From Gordius sp. MW1 (Eukaryota > Nematomorpha > Gordioida > Gordea > Gordiidae), in assembly GCA_964036665.1 (NCBI GenBank), contig OZ038526.1, forward strand, positions 28,768,001 through 28,832,000: 64,000 bases of DNA, given 5' to 3'. The notes under the pieces were generated by a model. The model was given only the letters and a program-made list of their open reading frames with translations, was not told where the DNA came from and did not search any database. Within the stretch, counting starts at the first letter, position 1; each line of letters opens with the position of its first letter. The translations under genes and the position numbers were made by a program. This document shows positions 1 through 57,343 of this stretch, piece after piece.

Positions 1-30
1 AATCTGTTTTCAGATAATGTTCATATTTAC

Positions 31-1038
31 CTGTAGGCGGACCTGAAGGAAGTGAAGGACCAGTTGGTACTACTGATGGGCCTGATGGAAGTGATGGACC
101 TGTTGGAGCCTCTGATGGACCTGATGGCAGACCTGATGGAAGCGATGGACCAGTTGGGGCCACTGATGGACCTGATGGGAGAGATGGACCAGTTGGTGCT
201 ACTGATGGGCCTGATGGAAGTGATGGACCTGTTGGAGCCATTGATGGGCCTGATGGAGGTGATGGACCCGTTGGAGCCATTGATGGACCTGATGGCTGAC
301 CTGAAGGAAGTGAAGGACCAGTTGGTAGTACTGATGGGCCTGATGGAAGTGATGGACCTGTTGGAGCCATTGATGGACCTGATGGAAGCGATGGACCAGT
401 TGGTACTACAGATGGGCCTGATGGAAGCGATGGACCAGTTGGTGCTACTGATGGGCCTGATGGAAGCGATGGACCGGTTGGTGCTACTGATGGTCCAGAT
501 GGAACTGATGGGCCACTTGGTGCTACAGATGGGCCTGATGGAAGCGATGGACCAGTTGGTGCTACTGATGGGCCTGATGGAAGTGATGGACCTGTTGGAG
601 CCTCTGATGGACCTGATGGCTGACCTGATGGGAGAGATGGACCTGTTGGAGCCACTAATGGACCTGATGGGAGAGATGGACCAGTTGGTACTACAGATGG
701 GCCTGATGGAAGCGATGGACCAGTTGGTGCTACTGATGGGCCTGATGGAAGCGATGGACCCGTTGGTGCTACTGATGGTCCAGATGGAACTGATGGACCA
801 CTTGGTGCTACAGATGGGCCTGATGGAAGCGATGGACCAGTTGGTGCTACTGATGGGCCTGATGGAAGTGATGGACCTGTTGGAGCCTCTGATGGACCTG
901 ATGGCCGACCTGATGGAAGCGATGGGCCAGTTGGTGCTACTGATGGGCCTGATGGAAGTGATGGACCTGTTGGAGCCATTGATGGGCCTGATGGAGGTGA
1001 TGGACCCGTTGGAGCCATTGATGGACCTGTTGGTTGAT
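31..1038 (-). CDS. Mucin-like exon M15 (1,008 nt, 336 codons)
   Basis: Splice sites and phase as in M2; the donor GTAAAT is intact at 25-30. This is the last exon visible, and the array very probably continues beyond the left edge because the intron sequence at 1-30 matches the repeated intron. Confidence 0.85.
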
Positions 1039-1386
1039 CTGATAGAAGATATGAAGCAGACGGAATATATGATTGGTGTAAATACAAAAATTATTTTAAA
1101 ATTATCTAACAATTTTTATATGTTGATGATTGATGCAATTAGCTTTTGAAGCAGCTACAATTTATTAATTGAGCTTGAAAGTAAACCTGGTGGGGTAACA
1201 TAGAGGCTAGTTGTGTGACATGGGATGGTTGGAGGAAACGATGGACCTTTAAAATTTGTTAAAAACATTATTCAGTAAGTCCTTATCTGATATTAATAAT
1301 AGAATTTAAAATTTTTAAATTTCGCCTATTTTAGGAAAATAAATAATAATTTATAAAATCTGTTCTCAGATAATGTTCATATTTAC
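1039..1386 (-). other. Representative 348-bp repeated intron
   Basis: AT-rich intron with donor GTAAATATG and acceptor TTCATATCTTCTATCAG. Copies of 348 bp lie at 3352-3699, 4708-5055, 7021-7368, 8947-9294, 11260-11607, 12901-13248, 14530-14877, 16045-16392, 17674-18021, 20080-20427 and 21436-21783; the copies at 23065-23411 and 25596-25942 are 347 bp. Substitutions are very few. I see no gene inside it. Confidence 0.8.
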
Positions 1387-3351
1387 CTGTAGGCGGACCT
1401 GAAGGAAGTGAAGGACCAGTTGGTACTACTGATGGGCCTGATGGAAGTGAAGGACCTGTTGGAGCCTCTGATGGACCTGATGGCAGACCTAATGGAAGCG
1501 ATGGACCAGTTGGAGCCACTGATGGACCTGATGGGAGAGATGGACCAGTTGGTGCTACTGATGGGCCTGATGGAAGCGATGGACCCGTTGGTGCTACTGA
1601 TGGTCCAGATGGAACTGATGGACCACTTGGTGCTACAGATGGGCCTGATGGAAGCGATGGACCAGTTGGTGCTACTGATGGGCCTGATGGAAGTGATGGA
1701 CCTGTTGGAGCCTCTGATGGACCTGATGGCTGACCTGATGGAAGCGATGGACCAGTTGGAGCCACTGATGGACCTGAAGGGAGAGATGGACCAGTTGGTG
1801 CTACTGATGGGCCTGATGGAAGTGATGGACCTGTTGGAGCCATTGATGGGCCTGATGGAAGCGATATACCAGTTGGAGCCACTGATGGACCTGATGGGAG
1901 AGATGGACCAGTTGGTGCTACTGATGGGCCTGATGGAAGTGATGGACCTGTGGGAGCCATTGATGGGCCTGATGGAAGTGATGGACCTGTTGGAGCCATT
2001 GATGGACCTGATGGCTGACCTGAAGGAAGTGAAGGACCAGTTGGTAGTACTGATGGGCCTGATGGAAGTGATGGACCTGTTGGAGCCTCTGATGGACCTG
2101 ATGGCTGACCTGATGGAAGCGATGGACCAGTTGGAGCCACTGATGGACCTGATGGGAGAGATGGACCAGTTGGTGCTACTGATGGGCCTGATGGAAGTGA
2201 TGGACCTGTCGGAGCCATTGATGGGCCTGGTGGAAGTGATGGACCTGTTGGAGCCTCTGATGGACCTGATGGCTGACCTGATGGAAGCGATGGACCAGTT
2301 GAAGCCACTGATGGACCTGATGGGAGAGATGGACCAGTTGGTGCTACTGATGGGCCTGATGGAAGTGATGGACCTGTCGGAGCCATTGATGGGCCTGATG
2401 GAGGTGATGGACCCGTTGGAGCGATTGATGGACCTGATGGCTGACCTGAAGGAAGTGAAGGACCAGTTGGTAGTACTGATGGGCCTGATGGAAGTGATGG
2501 ACCTGTTGGAGCCTCTGATGGACCTGATGGCTGACCTGATGGAAGCGATGGACCAGTTGGAGCCACTGATGGACCTGATGGGAAAGATGGACCAGTTGGT
2601 GCTACTGATGGGCCTGATGGAAGTGATGGACCTGTTGGAGCCATTGATGGGCCTGATGGAAGCGATGGACCAGTTGGAGCCACTGATGGACCTGATGGGA
2701 GAGATGCACCAGTTGGTGCTACTGATGGGCCTGATGGAAGTGATGGACCTGTGGGAGCCATTGATGGGCCTGATGGAAGTGATGGACCTGTTGGAGCCAT
2801 TGATGGACCTGATGGAAGCGATGGACCAGTTGGTACTACAGATGGGCCTGATGGAAGCGATGGACCACTTGGTGCTACTGATGGGCCTGATGGAAGCGAT
2901 GGACCGGTTGGTGCTACTGATGGTCCAGATGGAACTGATGGGCCACTTGGGGCTACAGATGGGCCTGATGGAAGCGATGGACCAGTTGGTGCTACTGATG
3001 GGCCTGATGGAAGTGATGGACCTGTTGGAGCCTCTGATGGACCTGATGGCTGACCTGATGGGAGAGATGGACCTGTTGGAGCCACTGATGGACCTGATGG
3101 GAGAGATGGACCAGTTGGTACTACAGATGGGCCTGATGGAAGCGATGGACCAGTTGGTGCTACTGATGGGCCTGATGGAAGTGATGGACCTGTTGGAGCC
3201 TCTGATGGACCTGATGGCCGACCTGATGGAAGCGATGGACCAGTTGGTGCTACTGATGGGCCTGATGGAAGTGATGGACCTGTAGGAACCATTGATGGGC
3301 CTGATGGAGGTGATGGACCCGTTGGAGCCATTGATGGACCTGTTGGTTGAT
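1387..3351 (-). CDS. Mucin-like exon M14 (1,965 nt, 655 codons)
   Basis: Splice sites and phase as in M2. It differs from M12 by a silent proline-codon change at 3283. That same base closes the overlapping plus-strand frame without affecting the peptide, which supports the minus PTS frame as the coding one. Confidence 0.85.
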
Positions 3352-3699
3352 CTGATAGAAGATATGAAGCAGACGGAATATATGATTGGTGTAAATACAA
3401 AAATTATTTTAAAATTATCTAACAATTTTTATATGTTGATGATTGATGCAATTAGCTTTTGAAGCAGCTACAATTTATTAATTGAGCTTGAAAGTAAACC
3501 TGGTGGGGTAACATAGAGTCTAGTTGTGTGACATGGGATGGTTGGAGGAAACGATGGACCTTTAAAATTTGTTAAAAACATTATTCAGTAAGTCCTTATC
3601 TGATATTAATAATAGAATTTAAAATTTTTAAATTTCGCCTATTTTAGGAAAATAAATAATAATTTATAAAATCTGTTTTCAGATAATGTTCATATTTAC

Positions 3700-4707
3700 C
3701 TGTAGGCGGACCTGAAGGAAGTGAAGGACCAGTTGGTACTACTGATGGGCCTGATGGAAGTGATGGACCTGTTGGAGCCTCTGATGGACCTGATGGCAGA
3801 CCTGATGGAAGCGATGGACCAGTTGGGGCCACTGATGGACCTGATGGGAGAGATGGACCAGTTGGTGCTACTGATGGGCCTGATGGAAGTGATGGACCTG
3901 TTGGAGCCATTGATGGGCCTGATGGAGGTGATGGACCCGTTGGAGCCATTGATGGACCTGATGGCTGACCTGAAGGAAGTGAAGGACCAGTTGGTAGTAC
4001 TGATGGGCCTGATGGAAGTGATGGACCTGTTGGAGCCATTGATGGACCTGATGGAAGCGATGGACCAGTTGGTACTACAGATGGGCCTGATGGAAGCGAT
4101 GGACCAGTTGGTGCTACTGATGGGCCTGATGGAAGCGATGGACCGGTTGGTGCTACTGATGGTCCAGATGGAACTGATGGGCCACTTGGTGCTACAGATG
4201 GGCCTGATGGAAGCGATGGACCAGTTGGTGCTACTGATGGGCCTGATGGAAGTGATGGACCTGTTGGAGCCTCTGATGGACCTGATGGCTGACCTGATGG
4301 GAGAGATGGACCTGTTGGAGCCACTAATGGACCTGATGGGAGAGATGGACCAGTTGGTACTACAGATGGGCCTGATGGAAGCGATGGACCAGTTGGTGCT
4401 ACTGATGGGCCTGATGGAAGCGATGGACCCGTTGGTGCTACTGATGGTCCAGATGGAACTGATGGACCACTTGGTGCTACAGATGGGCCTGATGGAAGCG
4501 ATGGACCAGTTGGTGCTACTGATGGGCCTGATGGAAGTGATGGACCTGTTGGAGCCTCTGATGGACCTGATGGCCGACCTGATGGAAGCGATGGGCCAGT
4601 TGGTGCTACTGATGGGCCTGATGGAAGTGATGGACCTGTTGGAGCCATTGATGGGCCTGATGGAGGTGATGGACCCGTTGGAGCCATTGATGGACCTGTT
4701 GGTTGAT
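3700..4707 (-). CDS. Mucin-like exon M13 (1,008 nt, 336 codons)
   Basis: Splice sites and phase as in M2. I see no difference from M15. It includes the in-frame variant GPLVAPTG. Confidence 0.85.
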
Positions 4708-5055
4708 CTGATAGAAGATATGAAGCAGACGGAATATATGATTGGTGTAAATACAAAAATTATTTTAAAATTATCTAACAATTTTTATATGTTGATGATT
4801 GATGCAATTAGCTTTTGAAGCAGCTACAATTTATTAATTGAGCTTGAAAGTAAACCTGGTGGGGTAACATAGAGGCTAGTTGTGTGACATGGGATGGTTG
4901 GAGGAAACGATGGACCTTTAAAATTTGTTAAAAACATTATTCAGTAAGTCCTTATCTGATATTAATAATAGAATTTAAAATTTTTAAATTTCGCCTATTT
5001 TAGGAAAATAAATAATAATTTATAAAATCTGTTCTCAGATAATGTTCATATTTAC

Positions 5056-7020
5056 CTGTAGGCGGACCTGAAGGAAGTGAAGGACCAGTTGGTACTACTG
5101 ATGGGCCTGATGGAAGTGAAGGACCTGTTGGAGCCTCTGATGGACCTGATGGCAGACCTAATGGAAGCGATGGACCAGTTGGAGCCACTGATGGACCTGA
5201 TGGGAGAGATGGACCAGTTGGTGCTACTGATGGGCCTGATGGAAGCGATGGACCCGTTGGTGCTACTGATGGTCCAGATGGAACTGATGGACCACTTGGT
5301 GCTACAGATGGGCCTGATGGAAGCGATGGACCAGTTGGTGCTACTGATGGGCCTGATGGAAGTGATGGACCTGTTGGAGCCTCTGATGGACCTGATGGCT
5401 GACCTGATGGAAGCGATGGACCAGTTGGAGCCACTGATGGACCTGAAGGGAGAGATGGACCAGTTGGTGCTACTGATGGGCCTGATGGAAGTGATGGACC
5501 TGTTGGAGCCATTGATGGGCCTGATGGAAGCGATATACCAGTTGGAGCCACTGATGGACCTGATGGGAGAGATGGACCAGTTGGTGCTACTGATGGGCCT
5601 GATGGAAGTGATGGACCTGTGGGAGCCATTGATGGGCCTGATGGAAGTGATGGACCTGTTGGAGCCATTGATGGACCTGATGGCTGACCTGAAGGAAGTG
5701 AAGGACCAGTTGGTAGTACTGATGGGCCTGATGGAAGTGATGGACCTGTTGGAGCCTCTGATGGACCTGATGGCTGACCTGATGGAAGCGATGGACCAGT
5801 TGGAGCCACTGATGGACCTGATGGGAGAGATGGACCAGTTGGTGCTACTGATGGGCCTGATGGAAGTGATGGACCTGTCGGAGCCATTGATGGGCCTGGT
5901 GGAAGTGATGGACCTGTTGGAGCCTCTGATGGACCTGATGGCTGACCTGATGGAAGCGATGGACCAGTTGAAGCCACTGATGGACCTGATGGGAGAGATG
6001 GACCAGTTGGTGCTACTGATGGGCCTGATGGAAGTGATGGACCTGTCGGAGCCATTGATGGGCCTGATGGAGGTGATGGACCCGTTGGAGCGATTGATGG
6101 ACCTGATGGCTGACCTGAAGGAAGTGAAGGACCAGTTGGTAGTACTGATGGGCCTGATGGAAGTGATGGACCTGTTGGAGCCTCTGATGGACCTGATGGC
6201 TGACCTGATGGAAGCGATGGACCAGTTGGAGCCACTGATGGACCTGATGGGAAAGATGGACCAGTTGGTGCTACTGATGGGCCTGATGGAAGTGATGGAC
6301 CTGTTGGAGCCATTGATGGGCCTGATGGAAGCGATGGACCAGTTGGAGCCACTGATGGACCTGATGGGAGAGATGCACCAGTTGGTGCTACTGATGGGCC
6401 TGATGGAAGTGATGGACCTGTGGGAGCCATTGATGGGCCTGATGGAAGTGATGGACCTGTTGGAGCCATTGATGGACCTGATGGAAGCGATGGACCAGTT
6501 GGTACTACAGATGGGCCTGATGGAAGCGATGGACCACTTGGTGCTACTGATGGGCCTGATGGAAGCGATGGACCGGTTGGTGCTACTGATGGTCCAGATG
6601 GAACTGATGGGCCACTTGGGGCTACAGATGGGCCTGATGGAAGCGATGGACCAGTTGGTGCTACTGATGGGCCTGATGGAAGTGATGGACCTGTTGGAGC
6701 CTCTGATGGACCTGATGGCTGACCTGATGGGAGAGATGGACCTGTTGGAGCCACTGATGGACCTGATGGGAGAGATGGACCAGTTGGTACTACAGATGGG
6801 CCTGATGGAAGCGATGGACCAGTTGGTGCTACTGATGGGCCTGATGGAAGTGATGGACCTGTTGGAGCCTCTGATGGACCTGATGGCCGACCTGATGGAA
6901 GCGATGGACCAGTTGGTGCTACTGATGGGCCTGATGGAAGTGATGGACCTGTTGGAACCATTGATGGGCCTGATGGAGGTGATGGACCCGTTGGAGCCAT
7001 TGATGGACCTGTTGGTTGAT
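5056..7020 (-). CDS. Mucin-like exon M12 (1,965 nt, 655 codons)
   Basis: Splice sites and phase as in M2. Its predicted peptide appears identical to that of M14, exactly 3,669 bp away. Confidence 0.85.
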
Positions 7021-7368
7021 CTGATAGAAGATATGAAGCAGACGGAATATATGATTGGTGTAAATACAAAAATTATTTTAAAATTATCTAACAATTTTTA
7101 TATGTTGATGATTGATGCAATTAGCTTTTGAAGCAGCTACAATTTATTAATTGAGCTTGAAAGTAAACCTGGTGGGGTAACATAGAGTCTAGTTGTGTGA
7201 CATGGGATGGTTGGAGGAAACGATGGACCTTTAAAATTTGTTAAAAACATTATTCAGTAAGTCCTTATCTGATATTAATAATAGAATTTAAAATTTTTAA
7301 ATTTCGCCTATTTTAGGAAAATAAATAATAATTTATAAAATCTGTTTTCAGATAATGTTCATATTTAC

Positions 7369-8946
7369 CTGTAGGCGGACCTGAAGGAAGTGAAGGACCA
7401 GTTGGTACTACTGATGGGCCTGATGGAAGTGATGGACCTGTTGGAGCCTCTGATGGACCTGATGGCAGACCTGATGGAAGCGATGGACCAGTTGGGGCCA
7501 CTGATGGACCTGATGGGAGAGATGGACCAGTTGGTGCTACTGATGGGCCTGATGGAAGTGATGGACCTGTTGGAGCCATTGATGGGCCTGATGGAGGTGA
7601 TGGACCCGTTGGAGCCATTGATGGACCTGATGGCTGACCTGAAGGAAGTGAAGGACCAGTTGGTAGTACTGATGGGCCTGATGGAAGTGATGGACCTGTT
7701 GGAGCCTCTGATGGACCTGATGGCTGACCTGATGGAAGCGATGGACCAGTTGGAGCCACTGATGGACCTGAAGGGAGAGATGGACCAGTTGGTGCTACTG
7801 ATGGGCCTGATGGAAGTGATGGACCTGTTGGAGCCATTGATGGGCCTGATGGAAGCGATGGACCAGTTGGAGCCACTGATGGACCTGATGGGAGAGATGG
7901 ACCAGTTGGTGCTACTGATGGGCCTGATGGAAGTGATAGACCTGTGGGAGCCATTGATGGGCCTGATGGAAGTGATGGACCTGTTGGAGCCATTGATGGA
8001 CCTGATGGAAGCGATGGACCAGTTGGTACTACAGATGGGCCTGATGGAAGCGATGGACCAGTTGGTGCTACTGATGGGCCTGATGGAAGCGATGGACCGG
8101 TTGGTGCTACTGATGGTCCAGATGGAACTGATGGGCCACTTGGTGCTACAGATGGGCCTGATGGAAGCGATGGACCAGTTGGTGCTACTGATGGGCCTGA
8201 TGGAAGTGATGGACCTGTTGGAGCCTCTGATGGACCTGATGGCTGACCTGATGGGAGAGATGGACCTGTTGGAGCCACTGATGGACCTGATGGGAGAGAT
8301 GGACCAGTTGGTACTACAGATGGGCCTGATGGAAGCGATGGACCAGTTGGTGCTACTGATGGGCCTGATGGAAGCGATGGACCGGTTGGTGCTACTGATG
8401 GTCCAGATGGAACTGATGGGCCACTTGGTGCTACAGATGGGCCTGATGGAAGCGATGGACCAGTTGGTGCTACTGATGGGCCTGATGGAAGTGATGGACC
8501 TGTTGGAGCCTCTGATGGACCTGATGGCTGACCTGATGGGAGAGATGGACCTGTTGGAGCCACTGATGGACCTGATGGGAGAGATGGACCAGTTGGTACT
8601 ACAGATGGGCCTGATGGAAGCGATGGACCAGTTGGTGCTACTGATGGGCCTGATGGAAGCGATGGACCCGTTGGTGCTACTGATGGTCCAGATGGAACTG
8701 ATGGACCACTTGGTGCTACAGATGGGCCTGATGGAAGCGATGGACCAGTTGGTGCTACTGATGGGCCTGATGGAAGTGATGGACCTGTTGGAGCCTCTGA
8801 TGGACCTGATGGCCGACCTGATGGAAGCGATGGGCCAGTTGGTGCTACTGATGGGCCTGATGGAAGTGATGGACCTGTTGGAGCCATTGATGGGCCTGAT
8901 GGAGGTGATGGACCCGTTGGAGCCATTGATGGACCTGTTGGTTGAT
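7369..8946 (-). CDS. Mucin-like exon M11 (1,578 nt, 526 codons)
   Basis: Splice sites and phase as in M2. It corresponds to M13/M15 with 570 extra bp, including a tandemly repeated block (SEAPTG to GQPSG) present one more time than in M9. Confidence 0.85.
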
Positions 8947-9294
8947 CTGATAGAAGATATGAAGCAGACGGAATATATGATTGGTGTAAATACAAAAATT
9001 ATTTTAAAATTATCTAACAATTTTTATATGTTGATGATTGATGCAATTAGCTTTTGAAGCAGCTACAATTTATTAATTGAGCTTGAAAGTAAACCTGGTG
9101 GGGTAACATAGAGGCTAGTTGTGTGACATGGGATGGTTGGAGGAAACGATGGACCTTTAAAATTTGTTAAAAACATTATTCAGTAAGTCCTTATCTGATA
9201 TTAATAATAGAATTTAAAATTTTTAAATTTCGCCTATTTCAGGAAAATAAATAATAATTTATAAAATCTGTTCTCAGATAATGTTCATATTTAC

Positions 9295-11259
9295 CTGTAG
9301 GCGGACCTGAAGGAAGTGAAGGACCAGTTGGTACTACTGATGGGCCTGATGGAAGTGAAGGACCTGTTGGAGCCTCTGATGGACCTGATGGCAGACCTGA
9401 TGGAAGCGATGGACCAGTTGGAGCCACTGATGGACCTGATGGGAGAGAGGGACCAGTTGGTGCTACTGATGGGCCTGATGGAAGCGATGGACCCGTTGGT
9501 GCTACTGATGGTCCAGATGGAACTGATGGACCACTTGGTGCTACAGATGGGCCTGATGGAAGCGATGGACCAGTTGGTGCTACTGATGGGCCTGATGGAA
9601 GTGATGGACCTGTTGGAGCCTCTGATGGACCTGATGGCTGACCTGATGGAAGCGATGGACCAGTTGGAGCCACTGATGGACCTGAAGGGAGAGATGGACC
9701 AGTTGGTGCTACTGATGGGCCTGATGGAAGTGATGGACCTGTTGGAGCCATTGATGGGCCTGATGGAAGCGATATACCAGTTGGAGCCACTGATGGACCT
9801 GATGGGAGAGATGGACCAGTTGGTGCTACTGATGGGCCTGATGGAAGTGATGGACCTGTGGGAGCCATTGATGGGCCTGATGGAAGTGATGGACCTGTTG
9901 GAGCCATTGATGGACCTGATGGCTGACCTGAAGGAAGTGAAGGACCAGTTGGTAGTACTGATGGGCCTGATGGAAGTGATGGACCTGTTGGAGCCTCTGA
10001 TGGACCTGATGGCTGACCTGATGGAAGCGATGGACCAGTTGGAGCCACTGATGGACCTGATGGGAGAGATGGACCAGTTGGTGCTACTGATGGGCCTGAT
10101 GGAAGTGATGGACCTGTCGGAGCCATTGATGGGCCTGGTGGAAGTGATGGACCTGTTGGAGCCTCTGATGGACCTGATGGCTGACCTGATGGAAGCGATG
10201 GACCAGTTGAAGCCACTGATGGACCTGATGGGAGAGATGGACCAGTTGGTGCTACTGATGGGCCTGATGGAAGTGATGGACCTGTCGGAGCCATTGATGG
10301 GCCTGATGGAGGTGATGGACCCGTTGGAGCGATTGATGGACCTGATGGCTGACCTGAAGGAAGTGAAGGACCAGTTGGTAGTACTGATGGGCCTGATGGA
10401 AGTGATGGACCTGTTGGAGCCTCTGATGGACCTGATGGCTGACCTGATGGAAGCGATGGACCAGTTGGAGCCACTGATGGACCTGATGGGAAAGATGGAC
10501 CAGTTGGTGCTACTGATGGGCCTGATGAAAGTGATGGACCTGTTGGAGCCATTGATGGGCCTGATGGAAGCGATGGACCAGTTGGAGCCACTGATGGACC
10601 TGATGGGAGAGATGCACCAGTTGGTGCTACTGATGGGCCTGATGGAAGTGATGGACCTGTGGGAGCCATTGATGGGCCTGATGGAAGTGATGGACCTGTT
10701 GGAGCCATTGATGGACCTGATGGAAGCGATGGACCAGTTGGTACTACAGATGGGCCTGATGGAAGCGATGGACCACTTGGTGCTACTGATGGGCCTGATG
10801 GAAGCGATGGACCGGTTGGTGCTACTGATGGTCCAGATGGAACTGATGGGCCACTTGGGGCTACAGATGGGCCTGATGGAAGCGATGGACCAGTTGGTGC
10901 TACTGATGGGCCTGATGGAAGTGATGGACCTGTTGGAGCCTCTGATGGACCTGATGGCTGACCTGATGGGAGAGATGGACCTGTTGGAGCCACTGATGGA
11001 CCTGATGGGAGAGATGGACCAGTTGGTACTACAGATGGGCCTGATGGAAGCGATGGACCAGTTGGTGCTACTGATGGGCCTGATGGAAGTGATGGACCTG
11101 TTGGAGCCTCTGATGGACCTGATGGCCGACCTGATGGAAGCGATGGACCAGTTGGTGCTACTGATGGGCCTGATGGAAGTGATGGACCTGTTGGAACCAT
11201 TGATGGGCCTGATGGAGGTGATGGACCCGTTGGAGCCATTGATGGACCTGTTGGTTGAT
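9295..11259 (-). CDS. Mucin-like exon M10 (1,965 nt, 655 codons)
   Basis: Splice sites and phase as in M2. It has the same length as M12 and M14 and is almost identical to them, with a few changes (PSLSSG in place of [13 protein letters not shown] in place of PLGLPSG). Confidence 0.85.
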
Positions 11260-11607
11260 CTGATAGAAGATATGAAGCAGACGGAATATATGATTGGTGT
11301 AAATACAAAAATTATTTTAAAATTATCTAACAATTTTTATATGTTGATGATTGATGCAATTAGCTTTTGAAGCAGCTACAATTTATTAATTGAGCTTGAA
11401 AGTAAACCTGGTGGGGTAACATAGAGTCTAGTTGTGTGACATGGGATGGTTGGAGGAAACGATGGACCTTTAAAATTTGTTAAAAACATTATTCAGTAAG
11501 TCCTTATCTGATATTAATAATAGAATTTAAAATTTTTAAATTTCGCCTATTTTAGGAAAATAAATAATAATTTATAAAATCTGTTTTCAGATAATGTTCA
11601 TATTTAC

Positions 11608-12900
11608 CTGTAGGCGGACCTGAAGGAAGTGAAGGACCAGTTGGTACTACTGATGGGCCTGATGGAAGTGATGGACCTGTTGGAGCCTCTGATGGACCTG
11701 ATGGCAGACCTGATGGAAGCGATGGACCAGTTGGGGCCACTGATGGACCTGATGGGAGAGATGGACCAGTTGGTGCTACTGATGGGCCTGATGGAAGTGA
11801 TGGACCTGTTGGAGCCATTGATGGGCCTGATGGAGGTGATGGACCCGTTGGAGCCATTGATGGACCTGATGGCTGACCTGAAGGAAGTGAAGGACCAGTT
11901 GGTAGTACTGATGGGCCTGATGGAAGTGATGGACCTGTTGGAGCCTCTGATGGACCTGATGGCTGACCTGATGGAAGCGATGGACCAGTTGGAGCCACTG
12001 ATGGACCTGAAGGGAGAGATGGACCAGTTGGTGCTACTGATGGGCCTGATGGAAGTGATGGACCTGTTGGAGCCATTGATGGGCCTGATGGAAGCGATGG
12101 ACCAGTTGGAGCCACTGATGGACCTGATGGGAGAGATGGACCAGTTGGTGCTACTGATGGGCCTGATGGAAGTGATAGACCTGTGGGAGCCATTGATGGG
12201 CCTGATGGAAGTGATGGACCTGTTGGAGCCATTGATGGACCTGATGGAAGCGATGGACCAGTTGGTACTACAGATGGGCCTGATGGAAGCGATGGACCAG
12301 TTGGTGCTACTGATGGGCCTGATGGAAGCGATGGACCGGTTGGTGCTACTGATGGTCCAGATGGAACTGATGGGCCACTTGGTGCTACAGATGGGCCTGA
12401 TGGAAGCGATGGACCAGTTGGTGCTACTGATGGGCCTGATGGAAGTGATGGAACTGTTGGAGCCTCTGATGGACCTGATGGCTGACCTGATGGGAGAGAT
12501 GGACCTGTTGGAGCCACTGATGGACCTGATGGGAGAGATGGACCAGTTGGTACTACAGATGGGCCTGATGGAAGAGATGGACCAGTTGGTGCTACTGATG
12601 GGCCTGATGGAAGCGATGGACCCGTTGGTGCTACTGATGGTCCAGATGGAACTGATGGACCACTTGGTGCTACAGATGGGCCTGATGGAAGCGATGGACC
12701 AGTTGGTGCTACTGATGGGCCTGATGGAAGTGATGGACCTGTTGGAGCCTCTGATGGACCTGATGGCCGACCTGATGGAAGCGATGGGCCAGTTGGTGCT
12801 ACTGATGGGCCTGATGGAAGTGTTGGACCTGTTGGAGCCATTGATGGGCCTGATGGAGGTGATGGACCCGTTGGAGCCATTGATGGACCTGTTGGTTGAT
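11608..12900 (-). CDS. Mucin-like exon M9 (1,293 nt, 431 codons)
   Basis: Splice sites and phase as in M2. It shares most of its sequence with M11 but lacks one internal block of about 285 bp, and has private changes such as GPTLPSG and APTVPSL. Its downstream intron carries the GTTTTCAG marker of the alternate unit type. Confidence 0.85.
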
Positions 12901-13248
12901 CTGATAGAAGATATGAAGCAGACGGAATATATGATTGGTGTAAATACAAAAATTATTTTAAAATTATCTAACAATTTTTATATGTTGATGATTGATGCAA
13001 TTAGCTTTTGAAGCAGCTACAATTTATTAATTGAGCTTGAAAGTAAACCTGGTGGGGTAACATAGAGTCTAGTTGTGTGACATGGGATGGTTGGAGGAAA
13101 CGATGGACCTTTAAAATTTGTTAAAAACATTATTCAATAAGTCCTTATCTGATATTAATAATAGAATTTAAAATTTTTAAATTTCGCCTATTTTAGGAAA
13201 ATAAATAATAATTTATAAAATCTGTTCTCAGATAATGTTCATATTTAC

Positions 13249-14529
13249 CTGTAGGCGGACCTGAAGGAAGTGAAGGACCAGTTGGTACTACTGATGGGCC
13301 TGATGGAAGTGAAGGACCTGTTGGAGCCTCTGATGGACCTGATGGCAGACCTGATGGAAGCGATGGACCAGTTGGAGCCACTGATGGACCTGATGGGAGA
13401 GATGGACCAGTTGGTGCTACTGATGGGCCTGATGGAAGCGATGGACCCGTTGGTGCTACTGATGGTCCAGATGGAACTGATGGACCACTTGGTGCTACAG
13501 ATGGGCCTGATGGAAGCGATGGACCAGTTGGTGCTACTGATGGGCCTGATGGAAGTGATGGACCTGTTGGAGCCTCTGATGGACCTGATGGCTGACCTGA
13601 TGGAAGCGATGGACCAGTTGGAGCCACTGATGGACCTGAAGGGAGAGATGGACCAGTTGGTGCTACTGATGGGCCTGATGGAAGTGATGGACCTGTTGGA
13701 GCCATTGATGGGCCTGATGGAAGCGATGGACCAGTTGGAGCCACTGATGGACCTGATGGGAGAGATGGACCAGTTGGTGCTACTGATGGGCCTGATGGAA
13801 GTGATGGACCTGTGGGAGCCATTGATGGGCCTGATGGAAGTGATGGACCTGTTGGAGCCATTGATGGACCTGATGGAAGCGATGGACCAGTTGGTACTAC
13901 AGATGGGCCTGATGGAAGCGATGGACCAGTTGGTGCTACTGATGGGCCTGATGGAAGCGATGGACCGGTTGGTGCTACTGATGGTCCAGATGGAACTGAT
14001 GGGCCACTTGGTGCTACAGATGGGCCTGATGGAAGCGATGGACCAGTTGGTGCTACTGATGGGCCTGATGGAAGTGATGGACCTGTTGGAGCCTCTGATG
14101 GACCTGATGGCTGACCTGATGGGAGAGATGGACCTGTTGGAGCCACTGATGGACCTGATGGGAGAGATGGACCAGTTGGTACTACAGATGGGCCTGATGG
14201 AAGCGATGGACCAGTTGGTGCTACTGATGGGCCTGATGGAAGCGATGGACCCGTTGGTGCTACTGATGGTCCAGATGGAACTGATGGACCACTTGGTGCT
14301 ACAGATGGGCCTGATGGAAGCGATGGACCAGTTGGTGCTACTGATGGGCCTGATGGAAGTGATGGACCTGTTGGAGCCTCTGATGGACCTGATGGCCGAC
14401 CTGATGGAAGCGATGGGCCAGTTGGTGCTACTGATGGGCCTGATGGAAGTGATGGACCTGTTGGAGCCATTGATGGGCCTGATGGAGGTGATGGACCCGT
14501 TGGAGCCATTGATGGACCTGTTGGTTGAT
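13249..14529 (-). CDS. Mucin-like exon M8 (1,281 nt, 427 codons)
   Basis: Splice sites and phase as in M2. It is a near-identical partner of M6. Its first half resembles M9 and M11 and its 3' end resembles M10, suggesting unequal exchange between units. Confidence 0.85.
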
Positions 14530-14877
14530 CTGATAGAAGATATGAAGCAGACGGAATATATGATTGGTGTAAATACAAAAATTATTTTAAAATTATCTAA
14601 CAATTTTTATATGTTGATGATTGATGCAATTAGCTTTTGAAGCAGCTACAATTTATTAATTGAGCTTGAAAGTAAACCTGGTGGGGTAACATAGAGTCTA
14701 GTTGTGTGACATGGGATGGTTGGAGGAAACGATGGACCTTTAAAATTTGTTAAAAACATTATTCAGTAAGTCCTTATCTGATATTAATAATAGAATTTAA
14801 AATTTTTAAATTTCGCCTATTTTAGGAAAATAAATAATAATTTATAAAATCTGTTCTCAGATAATGTTCATATTTAC

Positions 14878-16044
14878 CTGTAGGCGGACCTGAAGGAAGT
14901 GAAGGACCAGTTGGTACTACTGATGGGCCTGATGGAAGTGATGGACCTGTTGGAGCCTCTGATGGACCTGATGGCAGACCTGATGGAAGCGATGGACCAG
15001 TTGGAGCCACTGATGGACCTGATGGGAGAGATGGACCAGTTGGTGCTACTGATGGGCCTGATGGAAGTGATGGACCTGTTGGAGCCATTGATATGCCTGA
15101 TGGAGGTGATGGACCCGTTGGAGCCATTGATGGACCTGATGGCTGACCTGAAGGAAGTGAAGGACCAGTTGGTAGTACTGATGGGCCTGATGGAAGTGAT
15201 GGACCTGTTGGAGCCTCTGATGGACCTGATGGCTGACCTGATGGAAGCGATGGACCAGTTGGAGCTACTGATGGACCTGATGGGAGAGATGGACCAGTTG
15301 GTGCTACTGATGGGCCTGATGGAAGTGATGGACCTGTTGGAGCCATTGATGGGCCTGATGGAAGCGATGGACCAGTTGGAGCCACTGATGGACCTGATGG
15401 GAGAGATGCACCAGTTAATGCTACTGATGGGCCTGATGGAAGTGATGGACCTGTGGGAGCCATTGATGGGCCTGATGGAAGTGATGGACCTGTTGGAGCC
15501 ATTGATGGACCTGATGGAAGCGATGGACCAGTTGGTACTACAGATGGGCCTGATGGAAGCGATGGACCAGTTGGTGCTACTGATGGGCCTGATGGAAGCG
15601 ATGGACCGGTTGGTGCTACTGATGGTCCAGATGGAACTGATGGGCCACTTGGTGCTACAGATGGGCCTGATGGAAGCGATGGACCAGTTGGTGCTACTGA
15701 TGGGCCTGATGGAAGTGATGGACCTGTTGGAGCCTCTGATGGACCTGATGGCTGACCTGATGGGAGAGATGGACCTGTTGGAGCCACTGATGGACCTGAT
15801 GGGAGAGATGGACCAGTTGGTACTACAGATGGGCCTGATGGAAGCGATGGACCAGTTGGTGCTACTGATGGGCCTGATGGAAGTGATGGACCTGTTGGAG
15901 CCTCTGATGGACCTGATGGCCGACCTGATGGAAGCGATGGACCAGTTGGTGCTACTGATGGAAGTGATGGACCTGTTGGAACCATTGATGGGCCTGATGG
16001 AGGTGATGTACCCGTTGGAGCCATTGATGGACCTGTTGGTTGAT
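14878..16044 (-). CDS. Mucin-like exon M7 (1,167 nt, 389 codons)
   Basis: Splice sites and phase as in M2. A 9-bp in-frame deletion gives [10 protein letters not shown], and it carries the variants GTSPPSG and VALTGASL. Shared variants link its 3' half to M5. Confidence 0.85.
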
Positions 16045-16392
16045 CTGATAGAAGATATGAAGCAGACGGAATATATGATTGGTGTAAATACAAAAATTAT
16101 TTTAAAATTATCTAACAATTTTTATATGTTGATGATTGATGCAATTAGCTTTTAAAGCAGCTACAATTTATTAATTGAGCTTGAAAGTAAACCTGGTGGG
16201 GTAACATAGAGTGTAGTTGTGTGACATGGGATGGTTGGAGGAAACGATGGACCTTTAAAATTTGTTAAAAACATTATTCAGTAAGTCCTTATCTGATATT
16301 AATAATAGAATTTAAAATTTTTAAATTTCGCCTATTTTAGGAAAATAAATAATAATTTATAAAATCTGTTCTCAGATAATGTTCATATTTAC

Positions 16393-17673
16393 CTGTAGGC
16401 GGACCTGAAGGAAGTGAAGGACCAGTTGGTACTACTGATGGGCCTGATGGAAGTGATGGACCTGTTGGAGCCTCTGATGGACCTGATGGCAGACCTGATG
16501 GAAGCGATGGACCAGTTGGAGCCACTGATGGACCTGATGGGAGAGATGGACCAGTTGGTGCTACTGATGGGCCTGATGGAAGCGATGGACCCGTTGGTGC
16601 TACTGATGGTCCAGATGGAACTGATGGACCACTTGGTGCTACAGATGGGCCTGATGGAAGCGATGGACCAGTTGGTGCTACTGATGGGCCTGATGGAAGT
16701 GATGGACCTGTTGGAGCCTCTGATGGACCTGATGGCTGACCTGATGGAAGCGATGGACCAGTTGGAGCCACTGATGGACCTGAAGGGAGAGATGGACCAG
16801 TTGGTGCTACTGATGGGCCTGATGGAAGTGATGGACCTGTTGGAGCCATTGATGGGCCTGATGGAAGCGATGGACCAGTTGGAGCCACTGATGGACCTGA
16901 TGGGAGAGATGGACCAGTTGGTGCTACTGATGGGCCTGATGGAAGTGATGGACCTGTGGGAGCCATTGATGGGCCTGATGGAAGTGATGGACCTGTTGGA
17001 GCCATTGATGGACCTGATGGAAGCGATGGACCAGTTGGTACTACAGATGGGCCTGATGGAAGCGATGGACCAGTTGGTGCTACTGATGGGCCTGATGGAA
17101 GCGATGGACCGGTTGGTGCTACTGATGGTCCAGATGGAACTGATGGGCCACTTGGTGCTACAGATGGGCCTGATGGAAGCGATGGACCAGTTGGTGCTAC
17201 TGATGGGCCTGATGGAAGTGATGGACCTGTTGGAGCCTCTGATGGACCTGATGGCTGACCTGATGGGAGAGATGGACCTGTTGGAGCCACTGATGGACCT
17301 GATGGGAGAGATGGACCAGTTGGTACTACAGATGGGCCTGATGGAAGCGATGGACCAGTTGGTGCTACTGATGGGCCTGATGGAAGCGATGGACCCGTTG
17401 GTGCTACTGATGGTCCAGATGGAACTGATGGACCACTTGGTGCTACAGATGGGCCTGATGGAAGCGATGGACCAGTTGGTGCTACTGATGGGCCTGATGG
17501 AAGTGATGGACCTGTTGGAGCCTCTGATGGACCTGATGGCCGACCTGATGGAAGCGATGGGCCAGTTGGTGCTACTGATGGGCCTGATGGAAGTGATGGA
17601 CCTGTTGGAGCCATTGATGGGCCTGATGGAGGTGATGGACCCGTTGGAGCCATTGATGGACCTGTTGGTTGAT
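16393..17673 (-). CDS. Mucin-like exon M6 (1,281 nt, 427 codons)
   Basis: Splice sites and phase as in M2. It is nearly identical to M8; at least one silent base separates them near the 3' end of the exon. Confidence 0.85.
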
Positions 17674-18021
17674 CTGATAGAAGATATGAAGCAGACGGAA
17701 TATATGATTGGTGTAAATACAAAAATTATTTTAAAATTATCTAACAATTTTTATATGTTGATGATTGATGCAATTAGCTTTTGAAGCAGCTACAATTTAT
17801 TAATTGAGCTTGAAAGTAAACCTGGTGGGGTAACATAGAGTCTAGTTGTGTGACATGGGATGGTTGGAGGAAACGATGGACCTTTAAAATTTGTTAAAAA
17901 CATTATTCAGTAAGTCCTTATCTGATATTAATAATAGAATTTAAAATTTTTAAATTTCGCCTATTTTAGGAAAATAAATAATAATTTATAAAATCTGTTC
18001 TCAGATAATGTTCATATTTAC

Positions 18022-20079: not shown

Positions 20080-20427
20080 CTGATAGAAGATATGAAGCAG
20101 ACGGAATATATGATTGGTGTAAATACAAAAATTATTTTAAAATTATCTAACAATTTTTATATGTTGATGATTGATGCAATTAGCTTTTAAAGCAGCTACA
20201 ATTTATTAATTGAGCTTGAAAGTAAACCTGGTGGGGTAACATAGAGTCTAGTTGTGTGACATGGGATGGTTGGAGGAAACGATGGACCTTTAAAATTTGT
20301 TAAAAACATTATTCAGTAAGTCCTTATCTGATATTAATAATAGAATTTAAAATTTTTAAATTTCGCCTATTTTAGGAAAATAAATAATAATTTATAAAAT
20401 CTGTTCTCAGATAATGTTCATATTTAC

Positions 20428-21435: not shown

Positions 21436-21783
21436 CTGATAGAATATATGAAGCAGACGGAATATATGATTGGTGTAAATACAAAAATTATTTTAAAATT
21501 ATCTAACAATTTTTATATGTTGATGATTGATGCAATTAGCTTTTAAAGCAGCTACAATTTATTAATTGAGCTTGAAAGTAAACCTGGTGGGGTAACATAG
21601 AGTCTAGTTGTGTGACATGGGATGGTTGGAGGAAACGATGGACCTTTAAAATTTGTTAAAAACATTATTCAGTAAGTCCTTATCTGATATTAATAATAGA
21701 ATTTAAAATTTTTAAATTTCGCCTATTTTAGGAAAATAAATAATAATTTATAAAATCTGTTCTCAGATAATGTTCATATTTAC

Positions 21784-23064: not shown

Positions 23065-23411
23065 CTGATAGAAGATATGAAGCAGACGGAATATATGATT
23101 GGTGTAAATACAAAAATTATTTTAAAATTATCTAACAATTTTATATGTTGATGATTGATGCAATTAGCTTTTGAAGCAGCTACAATTTATTAATTGAGCT
23201 TGAAAGTAAACCTGGTGGGGTAACATAGAGTCTAGTTGTGTGACATGGGATGGTTGGAGGAAACGATGGACCTTTAAAATTTGTTAAAAACATTATTCAG
23301 TAAGTCCTTATCTGATATTAATAATAGAATTTAAAATTTTTAAATTTCGCCTATTTTAGGAAAATAAATAATAATTTATAAAATCTGTTCTCAGATAATG
23401 TTCATATTTAC

Positions 23412-40273: not shown

Positions 40274-40306
40274 CCGATGAATTTGGATCAGAACTATCGC
40301 ATTTAC
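40274..40306 (-). CDS. Exon 20: 33-nt micro-exon after domain 2
   Basis: Acceptor GATAATTAACAG, donor TCGG|GTAATT, phase 1-1. Its GT completes the sixth cysteine of domain 2 and it then encodes KCDSSDPNSS, adding an extra cysteine. It matches the 33-nt exon after domain 1 in length, position, first dinucleotide and donor. Confidence 0.75.
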
Positions 40307-40542: not shown

Positions 40543-40620
40543 ATCTACATATAACACAACCCTTTGAATCAGTAATATAACCATATGGGCATTTGGTTTG
40601 ACATTTGGGAGGACAAGGCG
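40543..40620 (-). CDS. Exon 19: antistasin-like domain 2
   Basis: 78 nt, phase 1-1. It encodes a second module starting PCPPKC with the same spacing as domain 1: C-x3-C-x3-C-x10-C-x2-C-x-C. The middle reads CPYGYITDSKGC, the canonical antistasin G-Y-x-x-D-x-x-G-C pattern. The sixth cysteine is split at the donor (T|GTAAGTATT), exactly as in exon 3, so the two exons are duplicates. The likely role is serine-protease binding outside the cell. Confidence 0.85.
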
Positions 40621-42642: not shown

Positions 42643-42675
42643 CTGATGGCACAACAGACGGACTTGATGGTGCAA
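42643..42675 (-). CDS. Exon 18: 33-nt micro-exon (APSSPSVVPS)
   Basis: Acceptor TTGTTCCATTCAG, donor ATCAG|GTAAATT, phase 1-1. It encodes APSSPSVVPS, a partial mucin-repeat motif, and is the last exon before the second antistasin-like domain. Confidence 0.7.
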
Positions 42676-42755: not shown

Positions 42756-42815
42756 CTAATGAACTTGAAGACGAAAGAGGTGGATTTGATTGGAGTGTTG
42801 GTACTTTCGAAACCA
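42756..42815 (-). CDS. Exon 17: Ser-rich linker
   Basis: 60 nt, phase 1-1, acceptor GAAACTTCAG, donor TTAG|GTATAT. It encodes VSKVPTLQSNPPLSSSSSL with a run of five serines. Confidence 0.65.
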   Translation of the reverse strand, partial: WFRKYQHSNQIHLFRLQVH

Positions 42816-42899: not shown

Positions 42900-42968
42900 C
42901 CGATGCTGGCAACGATGGACCTGTAGACGGAGCAGATGGAGCTGATGGGAGTGCTGGAATTGAGGCAA
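42900..42968 (-). CDS. Exon 16: Pro/Ser/Ala-rich linker
   Basis: 69 nt, phase 1-1, acceptor AATCTTTTCAG, donor TCGG|GTTAAA. It begins ASIPALPSAPSAPSTG and ends PSLPAS, close in composition to the mucin repeat. Confidence 0.7.
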
Positions 42969-43204: not shown

Positions 43205-43285
43205 CTGTAGGCGCAACGGGTTGGCCGGATGGAAGAGAAGGTACAGTTAGTGTCGGTGATTGACCTGATGGTAAAACAGATGAAC
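43205..43285 (-). CDS. Exon 15: repeat-like linker (SLPSGQPVAPT)
   Basis: 81 nt, phase 1-1, acceptor TTAATTTAG. It encodes a segment beginning SSVLPSGQSPTLTV and ending [12 protein letters not shown], again like the later mucin repeat, including the GQP variant. The donor is uncertain: CTACAG|GTTCAT is used here. Alignment with the end of exon 14 (GSSKA.S) suggests a second possible donor at C|GTTTAT that would extend the exon to 43184, also phase 1. Confidence 0.7.
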
Positions 43286-44874: not shown

Positions 44875-44979
44875 CAGATGGTGCCTTCGATGAACCAGTA
44901 AGCGGAACATTCGGGGGTGATAGACCAGTTGGTGCCGCCAACGGACCTGTTGGTGCCACACCTGGAGCAACTGAGGAGC
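44875..44979 (-). CDS. Exon 14: repeat-like linker (VAPTG motifs)
   Basis: 105 nt, phase 1-1, acceptor TACTTACTTTAG, donor TCTG|GTAAATAT. It encodes 34 full residues beginning SSVAPGVAPTGPLAAPTG. VAPTG and SSKAPSG recur in neighbouring exons and in the mucin-like array, so this exon resembles a unit from which the 13-residue repeat could have grown. A transposon ends 35 bp beyond its donor-side edge. Confidence 0.8.
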
Positions 44980-47305: not shown

Positions 47306-47383
47306 CCGCCATAGTTGATGGCAACGAGGAACCACTTAGAGTTACAGAAGGAATATAGCTTGAGGCGATAGACTTAAGACCCC
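47306..47383 (-). CDS. Exon 12: Ser-rich linker
   Basis: 78 nt, phase 1-1, acceptor TTATATCTACAG, donor GCGG|GTATTT. The peptide begins GLKSIASSYIPSV and ends SGSSLPSTMA. SGSSLPS already resembles the later repeat motif. Confidence 0.6.
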
Positions 47384-56554: not shown

Positions 56555-56931
56555 CTTATTAAACGTCTTCATTATTTTTAGAAACCTTCACCCATTACAT
56601 TATATTTATTTACAATTAAATATTGTAAGTGTTTGTTTTTAATGTATTTAACGATATTGTATTCATCCCTTAAAGTTTTAATTTTAAAATTTGTCAATTA
56701 TGTTTTCTGTTTATATTTAGCAAAGAATTGACATTTTACACGTTGCATGTCAAAACATGCTCAATAAATTTTTAAAAAATTGAAATTTGCGGCTGCCGAC
56801 CAATTCATTTTTTAATAACAACATATAAATACTATTTCGATTTAAAAAAAGTTTTTTTGTTAATTACTTTAAAATTTTTACATTGTTCTGCACATTTTTT
56901 AATTATGCTTATATTAAAATTTAATAATTAC

Positions 56932-56964
56932 CCTTGGCTTGAGGTGTTTTGGTGTCTCCACTAC
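56932..56964 (-). CDS. Exon 4: 33-nt micro-exon
   Basis: Strong acceptor (TTTTTCATATTTTCCAG), donor AAGG|GTAATT, phase 1-1. Its first two bases complete the last cysteine of the preceding antistasin-like domain, then it encodes SGDTKTPQAK, a short charged linker. The matching exon after domain 2 (40274-40306) is also 33 nt. Confidence 0.75.
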
Positions 56965-57042
56965 CTGGAAAATATGAAAAACATTAAAATTATAAATTTT
57001 ATTTGGAGCTTAAGAATTTTAAAAAATTTATTTCACGCTTAC

Positions 57043-57123
57043 ATCTGCAGATGTAACACCCATTACTATCCGCTATGAAACTGTTGGGGCATTTCAAACT
57101 ACATTTAGGAGGACAAGGGACTT
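57043..57123 (-). CDS. Exon 3: antistasin-like domain 1
   Basis: 81 nt, phase 1-1. It encodes a cysteine-rich module starting VPCPPKC with spacing C-x3-C-x3-C-x10-C-x2-C-x-C, including a conserved Asp and Gly before the fourth cysteine. This is the antistasin signature of small serine-protease inhibitors. The sixth cysteine codon is split: T is the last base of this exon and the next exon supplies GT. The donor T|GTAAGCG is strong. The acceptor has tandem AG sites (TAGAAG). The closest relative in the window is the exon at 40543-40620. Confidence 0.85.
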
Positions 57124-57181
57124 CTAAATAAACGAAAAGATCAATATCGTAATAAATTTATCGGAGAAATAATTATTTTAC

Positions 57182-57208
57182 CATCTTGTCCCCTAACAAA
57201 GGTATTAT
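57182..57208 (-). CDS. Exon 2: 27-nt micro-exon
   Basis: Acceptor ends TATGCCACAG with a pyrimidine-rich lead; donor is GATG|GTAAAA; phase 1-1. It encodes NTFVRGQD between split codons. It appears obligatory: joining exon 1 directly to exon 3 would create TAA at the junction, while inclusion gives a clean reading (Y before, E after). Confidence 0.6.
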
Positions 57209-57258
57209 CTGTGGCATAAAATAACATAACTATGTGTCAATTTTATTTTATATCTTAC

Positions 57259-57343
57259 ATGAGGCAACGATTAAAATTAATAGAAGTAGGAACCCTGTAA
57301 TCCCTCCAAAGAGTCCCCTATTAACCAGGGGAGTCATTCTCAT
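57259..57343 (-). CDS. Exon 1: start codon and signal segment
   Basis: 85 nt, 28 codons plus one base. The peptide begins MRMTPLVNRGLFGG and continues into a leucine/isoleucine-rich core (FLLLLILIV) ending VAS, a typical secretory signal peptide with a small residue at the cleavage position. The start is the first ATG after an AT-rich leader; a second Met at residue 3 could serve instead. The donor is T|GTAAGATA, phase 1. The ORF stops just after the donor, so splicing is required. Confidence 0.7.

What the first reader, a model, noticed from the sequence alone, without database searches (positions are those of the whole stretch)
1..57343. A giant, probably undescribed secreted protein combining antistasin-like domains with at least 8,349 codons of mucin-like repeats
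Seen: minus-strand exons with good splice sites and matching phases run from a signal peptide through two six-cysteine modules into 15 PTS-repeat exons. Known: antistasin domains inhibit serine proteases; PTS repeats are O-glycosylation scaffolds. Inferred: a secreted protease-inhibiting mucin, perhaps for host interface or mucus. The combination and the size are unusual.
Basis: partly seen in the sequence, partly recalled or inferred. Interest (0 to 1): 0.95.

Follow-up and report, generated by a model that had tools for sequence, protein, structure and literature searches.

The report
Giant mucin-like gene of a hairworm
A parasitic hairworm carries what looks like one gene for a secreted, mucin-like protein of roughly 20,800 amino acids with two small antistasin-type modules near its front end, a candidate for the unidentified mucus that coats some of these worms.

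Summary
The exons are real. The array continues 44.6 kb past window position 1, to 38 exons and 20,559 codons in one frame, ending in TGA. A scrambled, stop-ridden relic of the same repeat about 620 kb away shows the repeat without coding constraint. The organism is a hairworm close to Gordius: COX1 95% identical, hairpin-rich mitochondrial DNA. Two exons exceed the Pfam Antistasin cut-off. Small proline/serine/threonine-rich (PTS) exon candidates lie between them, and the only leader exon found is at 57.34 kb. One 51-exon gene of about 20,830 residues is the best model, unproven without RNA. It meets a published mucin criterion (Ser+Thr 30.7%). The inhibitor claim is weak: each module is only the six-cysteine half of a ten-cysteine domain, with Ser or Gln where leech inhibitors carry Arg, Lys or Met. 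I propose a structural component of the mucus coat reported for other Gordiidae.

The parts
57259..57343 (-). first exon: ATG plus hydrophobic leader (signal peptide or anchor), ends in phase 1
   Evidence: the only exon passing the leader + phase-1 donor screen on the minus strand of 57.5-29.96 kb (two ATGs of the same exon); 0 on the plus strand of the same stretch
57182..57208 (-). 27-nt exon, phase 1-1, needed (or a 3-nt acceptor shift) to avoid an in-frame TAA at the leader/antistasin junction (model)
   Evidence: AG/GT flanks; spliced frame open
57043..57123 (-). exon with antistasin-type six-cysteine module 1
   Evidence: Pfam PF02822 30.8 bits, 29.8 bits in genome search; phase 1-1
56932..56964 (-). 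33-nt exon completing the last cysteine codon of module 1, phase 1-1
   Evidence: score 21.3, mostly from its splice sites
47306..47383 (-). candidate S/T-rich mini-exon, phase 1-1
   Evidence: score 28.4
44875..44979 (-). PTS mini-exon candidate, phase 1-1, donor GTAAATAT as in the array exons
   Evidence: score 57.5
43205..43285 (-). PTS mini-exon candidate, phase 1-1 (3' end uncertain)
   Evidence: score 43.4; the sequence shows another possible donor further 3'
42900..42968 (-). PTS mini-exon candidate, phase 1-1 (donor GTTAAA)
   Evidence: score 45.5
42756..42815 (-). S/P-rich mini-exon candidate, phase 1-1
   Evidence: score 27.0
42643..42675 (-). P/S-rich mini-exon candidate, phase 1-1, donor GTAAATTA
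   Evidence: score 34.5
40543..40620 (-). exon with antistasin-type six-cysteine module 2
   Evidence: Pfam PF02822 35.2 bits, 32.9 bits; phase 1-1
40274..40306 (-). candidate 33-nt exon following module 2, phase 1-1
   Evidence: score 13.2, weak
30060..30113 (-). candidate T-rich exon just before the array, phase 1-1
   Evidence: weak, not among the candidates above 10
25943..29947 (-). first and longest array exon, 4,005 nt (1,335 codons) of PTS repeats
31..25595 (-). 14 further array exons in the window (1,008 to 2,184 nt each), separated by 347-348 bp introns; the array continues left of the window to C8:28723402 (23 more exons, terminal TGA)
   Evidence: intron copies 98-100% identical

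Best explanation
One minus-strand gene of a Gordius-like hairworm, from window 57343 to -44598 (C8:28825343-28723402, 101.9 kb, 51 model exons, 20,831 residues), encodes a secreted mucin-type protein: leader, antistasin half-module, short PTS linkers, a second antistasin half-module, then a 20,559-residue repeat of alternating GPSLPS and GPSVAPT-like units. Shown: the array's exon series, its open frame, its phase-1 symmetry and signs of constraint on that frame. Inferred: that all exons are spliced together, that the Ser/Thr are O-glycosylated, and that the product forms a long, nearly uncharged, hydrated coat (the body-surface mucus reported in Gordiidae, or egg-string jelly). In this model the cysteine-rich modules at the N-terminus act as compact caps or attachment points, or as vestigial or altered protease inhibitors that guard the coat. 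The array grew by recent unequal exchange of whole exon-plus-intron blocks; symmetric phase-1 introns let any number of exons be added without breaking the frame.
For: Single open frame over 38 exons, with only the terminal stop. The first 37 array exons have lengths divisible by 3. All 37 introns have GTAAATAT donors and CTATCAG acceptors, but the exons were located by those motifs, so this uniformity is partly by construction. Unit matches in the spliced array lie in one frame and on one strand (2,593 of 2,593 and 1,449 of 1,449; none on the reverse strand); in the relic they lie in three frames and on both strands. Synonymous share of differences among distinct array units, cut by reading frame: 77 of 141 and 195 of 302, against 33% expected. 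Nonsense at Ser slots by the same scan: 0 of 6,635 in the array against 15 of 502 in the relic. Seven phase-1 mini-exon candidates score above 20 on the minus strand, all between the two antistasin exons; three control stretches (53.4, 53.4 and 39.9 kb) have none above 20, and the plus strand of the same region has one, which by eye is the antisense of one exon. One leader exon found. Published mucin criteria met. A surface mucus is reported for species of Gordius and Acutogordius.
Against: No RNA or protein data. There is a 9.5-kb gap with only weak candidates (11.2, 15.3, 18.0) between 56.9 and 47.4 kb, and a 10-kb gap with none above 10 between 40.3 and 30.1 kb. The mini-exon scan used the array's own composition as its model and splice thresholds that I loosened after a first pass, so it leans towards PTS exons. 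Of 14 candidates above score 10 I kept 8 and dropped 6. The splice at 57.2 kb needs a tiny 27-nt exon between 50- and 58-bp introns, or a shifted acceptor. By the same approximate scan, without using the frame, the synonymous share is 36% (six-residue unit) and 61% (seven-residue unit) in the array against 28-31% and 45-47% in the relic: for the six-residue unit the contrast is small. Array copies are near-identical duplicates, so codon and stop counts are not independent events. Ser/Thr content is 31%, below that of densely glycosylated vertebrate mucin domains (recalled).
Confidence: 0.6

Rival explanations
1. Two genes: a short antistasin-type gene (57.3-56.9 kb, perhaps to 40.3 kb) and a separate giant PTS gene whose leader exon was missed.
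For: Long exon-poor gaps at 56.9-47.4 and 40.3-30.1 kb. The same genome has clusters of antistasin modules elsewhere (77 matches), so an antistasin gene next to another gene would not be odd.
Against: PTS mini-exon candidates lie between the two antistasin exons and the PTS array follows module 2. No second leader exon with a phase-1 donor passed the screen in 27.5 kb. All model exons share phase 1.
Confidence: 0.25
2. The array is a non-coding minisatellite or a dead gene whose open frame is a by-product of a 3n repeat unit and recent homogenisation.
For: Introns 99.3% and one block 99.97% identical, so little time to accumulate stops. A second minus frame has only 7 stops. A relic of the same repeat elsewhere is clearly non-coding. 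By the frame-blind scan the six-residue unit is only slightly richer in synonymous differences than in the relic.
Against: Units cut by reading frame differ mainly at synonymous sites, and no nonsense change occurs before the terminal TGA. All 37 introns keep GT and AG ends. The relic shows that unconstrained drift of this repeat does produce stops, frameshifts and inversions.
Confidence: 0.08
3. Coding and secreted, but a structural elastomer, glue or egg-string fibre rather than a glycosylated mucin.
For: Pro 30%, Gly 16% and a regular [10 protein letters not shown] rhythm; Ser-rich rather than Thr-rich. Antistasin domains are known from adhesive secretions of limpets and sea stars (passages).
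Against: Almost no Lys, Tyr or Cys for cross-linking in the repeat (K 3, Y 0, Cys 1 in 20,559 residues). The composition passes the mucin screen.
Confidence: 0.3
4. The exon number is partly an assembly artefact, and the true array is much shorter or longer.
For: Tandem blocks of 3,669 bp (1 mismatch) and 4,893 bp (7 mismatches) are hard to assemble, and three pairs of array exons of over 1 kb are identical.
Against: No N in 204 kb. Most equal-length exon pairs still differ by at least one base, and exon lengths range from 477 to 4,005 nt.
Confidence: 0.15

Closest known systems
Secreted and giant PTS mucins, as catalogued for Drosophila (PMC2515642)
   Same: More than 25% Ser+Thr (30.7% here), many repeats, repeats far over one third of the length; the Drosophila set spans 300-23,000 residues (abstract and passages)
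   Different: Repeat is Pro/Ser/Gly-led (P 30, S 24, G 16, T 7%), nearly without charge, and carried on 38 duplicated phase-1 exons; N-terminal antistasin modules in the model
Antistasin-type inhibitors (Pfam PF02822)
   Same: Two modules above the Pfam cut-off with the six-cysteine pattern; single-module phase-1 exons
   Different: Only six of ten cysteines per module; Ser or Gln at the presumed P1; probably fused to a giant repeat
Multi-module antistasin proteins of hairworms (Gordionus sp.) and of this genome (C5, C3 clusters)
   Same: Same phylum and module type
   Different: Those seen are strings of antistasin modules. In the 20 loci of about 3 kb read from this genome (of 77 matches) no PSGPS/APTG array appeared; one, L018, had an 88-residue Gly/Pro/Ser-rich frame of another kind
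Antistasin-domain proteins of limpet mucus and sea-star adhesive (PMC7333891, PMC9382459)
   Same: Antistasin modules in a mucus or adhesive secretion
   Different: Separate proteins with WAP and other domains, not described in the passages seen as part of a mucin

Membership tests
[quoted passage not shown]
   ST 30.7%, P 30.4% over 20,559 residues, minimum 29 per 100-residue window; 3,228 G-led units of mostly 6 or 7 residues, read as pairs of about 13
PTS-repeat mucin (Drosophila criteria, PMC2515642) | Repeats at least one third of the protein | tested here: met
   20,559 of 20,831 model residues
PTS-repeat mucin | Secretion signal | tested here: inconclusive
   Leader exon at 57343-57259, joined to the array only in the model; judged by hydrophobicity, no signal-peptide predictor run
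PTS-repeat mucin | Dense O-glycosylation | not testable with these tools
   No protein data
Gel-forming mucin (MUC2 type) | Cys-rich VWD/CTCK assembly domains at the ends (definition recalled) | tested here: not met
   One Cys in the 20,559-residue repeat, which runs to the stop; upstream model exons hold only the two antistasin modules and a few single Cys. Judged from composition; no Pfam scan of the whole model was run
Antistasin family (PF02822) | Pfam profile above curated cut-off | tested here: met
   30.8 and 35.2 bits against 21.2
Antistasin-type serine protease inhibitor | Ten cysteines, five disulfides per domain (PMC6265900) | tested here: not met
   Six cysteines per module; no cysteine in the model exons just before module 1 or between the modules
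Antistasin-type serine protease inhibitor | Arg/Lys (trypsin-like) or Met (elastase) at P1 | tested here: not met
   Gln aligned with Arg34 of 1skz in module 2, Ser in module 1 by the same spacing; that Arg34 is P1 is recalled. Among 59 distinct modules in 20 other loci this place held L 12, K 9, A 8, S 5, T 5, Q 4, P 4, R 4 and others 8, so Ser and Gln occur elsewhere too
Antistasin-type serine protease inhibitor | Inhibits a serine protease | not testable with these tools
   Needs an assay

The most novel reading that the evidence does not exclude
A single, roughly 2-megadalton secreted mucin with antistasin caps is the main constituent of the Gordiidae surface mucus. It expands and contracts by exon-block exchange, so its length and the mucus properties differ between hairworm lineages (Gordius and Acutogordius coated, Chordodes not).
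Probability: 0.2. Interest if true: 0.75.

Novelty: new variant of a known kind. Interest (0 to 1): 0.56.

Why it matters
If right, this is among the largest predicted secreted proteins (Drosophila mucins reach 23,000 residues; human MUC16 is about as large, recalled). It gives a molecular candidate for a mucus that a 2017 paper called the first report of its kind in horsehair worms, with unknown function (PMC5523353, passages). The intact array and its scrambled relic on the same chromosome also form a natural pair for asking how a 60-kb coding repeat is kept in frame.

Tried and rejected
Species by paper search on assembly size: nothing relevant. First guesses from base composition and antistasin clusters (cnidarian, leech, insect) were dropped. 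The annelid and arthropod marker families gave no match, but the tool says such an empty answer does not show absence because no control rang either. The COX1 protein and the hairpin mitochondrial DNA settled on hairworm. Searching 5.8 billion proteins with the first array exon: 7,982 candidates scored, none at E <= 0.001; a low-complexity query is poorly served by this search, so this is not evidence that relatives are absent. A continuation into the Ig-like open frame 3 kb downstream was rejected: the array ends in TGA and the Ig match is sub-threshold, E 0.061. Reading the + strand ([13 protein letters not shown], collagen-like at first sight) was rejected because its three frames hold 174, 3,642 and 235 stops over the exons. 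Rfam at gathering thresholds: nothing in the window. A candidate exon at 42.57 kb was dropped because it meets a stop before a donor. Paper searches that listed no description of this gene or of an antistasin-mucin fusion in hairworms (top results of each listing seen, a few papers by passages).
Full report
WHAT WAS CHECKED. The window lies at C8:28768001-28832000 of an animal assembly of 211.8 Mb in 12 contigs. The left 30 kb are about 50% GC with strong strand skew; the rest is mostly about 30% GC.

THE ARRAY IS MUCH LARGER THAN THE WINDOW. With 100 kb of left flanking sequence fetched, the same exon series continues to window position -44598. It has 38 exons and 61,679 nt (20,559 codons plus stop). 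The first 37 array exons (477 to 4,005 nt) all have lengths divisible by 3 and start and end in phase 1. The last exon ends in TGA. Donors are GTAAATAT in 37 of 37 introns; acceptors are TCTATCAG in 36 and CCTATCAG in 1; the exons were located by these motifs, so the uniformity is partly by construction. Composition: P 30.4, S 23.6, G 15.7, T 7.1, L 6.8, A 6.3, V 5.7%; 40 Lys+Arg, 226 Asp+Glu, 10 F+W+Y+H, 1 Cys; 1.84 MDa before any glycan.

IS IT CODING? Three tests. (1) Stops per frame over the same exons: PTS frame 1 (terminal), other minus frames 750 and 7, plus frames 174, 3,642 and 235. (2) Units cut by reading frame: 1,452 of six residues and 1,442 of seven. Differences among distinct unit sequences are synonymous in 77 of 141 and 195 of 302 cases, against 33% if all changes were equally likely. 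The one nonsense change among them is the terminal TGA. (3) A natural control. Searches of the whole genome with array protein and intron DNA listed one other locus, near C8:28.094-28.101 Mb (150 of 396 protein candidates were scored and not all matches were listed, so others may exist). It holds the same repeat and a 201-bp piece of the array intron at 83% identity. Its units lie on both strands and in three frames (88 and 104 six-residue matches on the two strands, 50 and 68 seven-residue ones), whereas the spliced array has 2,593 and 1,449 matches, all in one frame and none on the reverse strand. The relic has 96-162 stops per frame in 6.7 kb. At the Ser positions the same scan finds 0 nonsense codons of 6,635 in the array and 15 of 502 in the relic (Fisher p 4e-18; copies are not independent, so the p-value is only indicative). 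Against: by this frame-blind scan the synonymous share of differences is 36% in the array against 28-31% in the relic for the six-residue unit, a small contrast, and 61% against 45-47% for the seven-residue unit. On balance the array frame is under constraint, or was until very recently.

HOW IT GREW. The 33 introns of exactly 348 bp (of 37) are on average 99.3% identical. Blocks of two exons (3,669 bp, 1 mismatch) and three exons (4,893 bp, 7 mismatches) are repeated in tandem, and three pairs of array exons (1,008, 1,110 and 1,074 nt) are identical. This fits recent unequal exchange of exon-plus-intron blocks, harmless to the frame because all these introns share phase 1. Copy number in the assembly should be checked with reads.

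WHAT LIES UPSTREAM. Antistasin exons at 57123-57043 and 40620-40543 pass Pfam's cut-off. A scan for phase-1 mini-exons with PTS composition, with splice thresholds loosened after a first pass, gave 14 candidates above score 10 on the minus strand of 57.5-29.96 kb, seven of them above 20 (56964, 47383, 44979, 43285, 42968, 42815, 42675). All seven lie between the two antistasin exons. Controls: plus strand of the same region 4 above 10, one above 20 (32.1; by eye the antisense of the 44979 exon); 53.4 kb minus 4 (best 11.5); 53.4 kb plus 4 (best 19.7); 39.9 kb minus 1 (12.4). I kept eight of the 14 in the model and dropped six (51905, 51398, 48600, 47192, 46061, 44775). The other five exons of the 5' model were chosen on other grounds: leader, 27-nt exon, the two antistasin exons and the 30113 exon, which did not reach 10 in the scan. 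A leader-exon screen returned only 57343-57259 on the minus strand and none on the plus strand of the same stretch. The spliced 13-exon 5' part is open throughout, giving 51 exons, 62,496 nt and 20,831 residues over 101.9 kb.

WHICH ANIMAL. The best four matches of an antistasin multi-module frame from the same genome are Gordionus sp. proteins. The mitochondrial contig's COX1 is 95% identical to Gordius sp. VVA-2019 and 88% to Gordionus alpestris. Its 4.3-kb stretch holds perfect inverted repeats with arms of 108, 95, 62 and 53 bp (longest arm in 20 shuffles: 12). Such repeats are described for hairworm mitochondrial genes in PMC6649704 (abstract and outline).

WHAT IT PROBABLY DOES. Shown: the array's exon anatomy, its frame and the module identities. 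Inferred: secretion, splicing into one product, glycosylation. The protein meets the Drosophila mucin screen of PMC2515642 (abstract and passages) but shows no gel-forming end domains. Two taxonomic papers report that Gordius chiashanus and Acutogordius taiwanensis are covered by a mucus or mucus-like layer, not seen by those authors in Chordodes formosanus; its function was called unknown, and protection against drying is their suggestion (PMC7311483 and PMC5523353, passages). A giant, nearly uncharged PTS protein is a natural candidate for that layer; egg-string jelly, cuticle lubricant or a coat facing the arthropod host are alternatives. Antistasin modules occur in separate proteins of limpet mucus and sea-star adhesive, where the authors suggest protection of the mucus, stability or antibacterial activity (PMC7333891, PMC9382459, passages). 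Here they would be fused to the mucin.

AGAINST THE INHIBITOR READING. Leech inhibitors of this type have ten cysteines and Arg/Lys or Met at P1 (PMC6265900, passages). The modules here have six cysteines, with Gln (module 2, aligned to 1skz) and Ser (module 1) at that place. The alignment to 1skz is weak (E 3.5, below RING-finger chains), and that its Arg34 is P1 is recalled. In 59 distinct modules read from 20 other antistasin loci of this genome (of 77 matches) the place is L in 12, K in 9, A in 8, S in 5, T in 5, Q in 4, P in 4 and R in 4: more inhibitor-like modules exist in the genome, but Ser and Gln are not unique to this gene.

VERDICT. Observation confirmed and enlarged; interpretation partly supported. 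A giant mucin-like gene in a hairworm: a new variant of a known kind, worth an RNA and proteome check.

Noticed in passing
window 59224-60063 (+): hAT-type transposase fragment (Dimer_Tnp_hAT E 3e-13, weak BED finger) just upstream of the gene.
   Followed up: partly
L049 (C8:28094001-28100968): Scrambled, inverted, stop-ridden relic of the same PTS repeat with a piece of the array intron; a natural non-coding control.
   Followed up: yes
L050 (C12): Mitochondrial contig with perfect hairpins up to 108-bp arms and a short tandem repeat just before COX1; COX1 needs TGA=Trp.
   Followed up: partly
G000 C8:2829490, C5:673008, C1:25292753, C4:356383 and others: Many nuclear COX1-like matches (24 in all, one being the mitochondrial gene), including a nearly full-length one on C8 and equal-scoring repeated ones on C4.
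   Followed up: no
G000 C5:4181000-4190300, C3:9201000-9235600, C3:2107000-2113600: Clusters of antistasin modules, some as long strings in one open frame.
   Followed up: partly
window 44619-44846, 31686-31934 (-): Similar GC-rich coding-like stretches in two introns of the model, probably a dispersed repeat.
   Followed up: no
window 45743-46342 (-) and L033 near window 84133 (+): Tandem SFFSIGQQPAHGKSGYKF-like frames at distant places, probably a dispersed repeat; no Pfam match for the window part tested.
   Followed up: no
L034:3496-4620 (+), window 97496-98620: Noggin-like gene 40 kb upstream (Pfam Noggin 51.7 bits).
   Followed up: no
L025:1603-2190 (-), window -48397 to -47810: Ig-like open frame 3 kb downstream of the array's stop, same strand, sub-threshold Ig_3 match.
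   Followed up: partly
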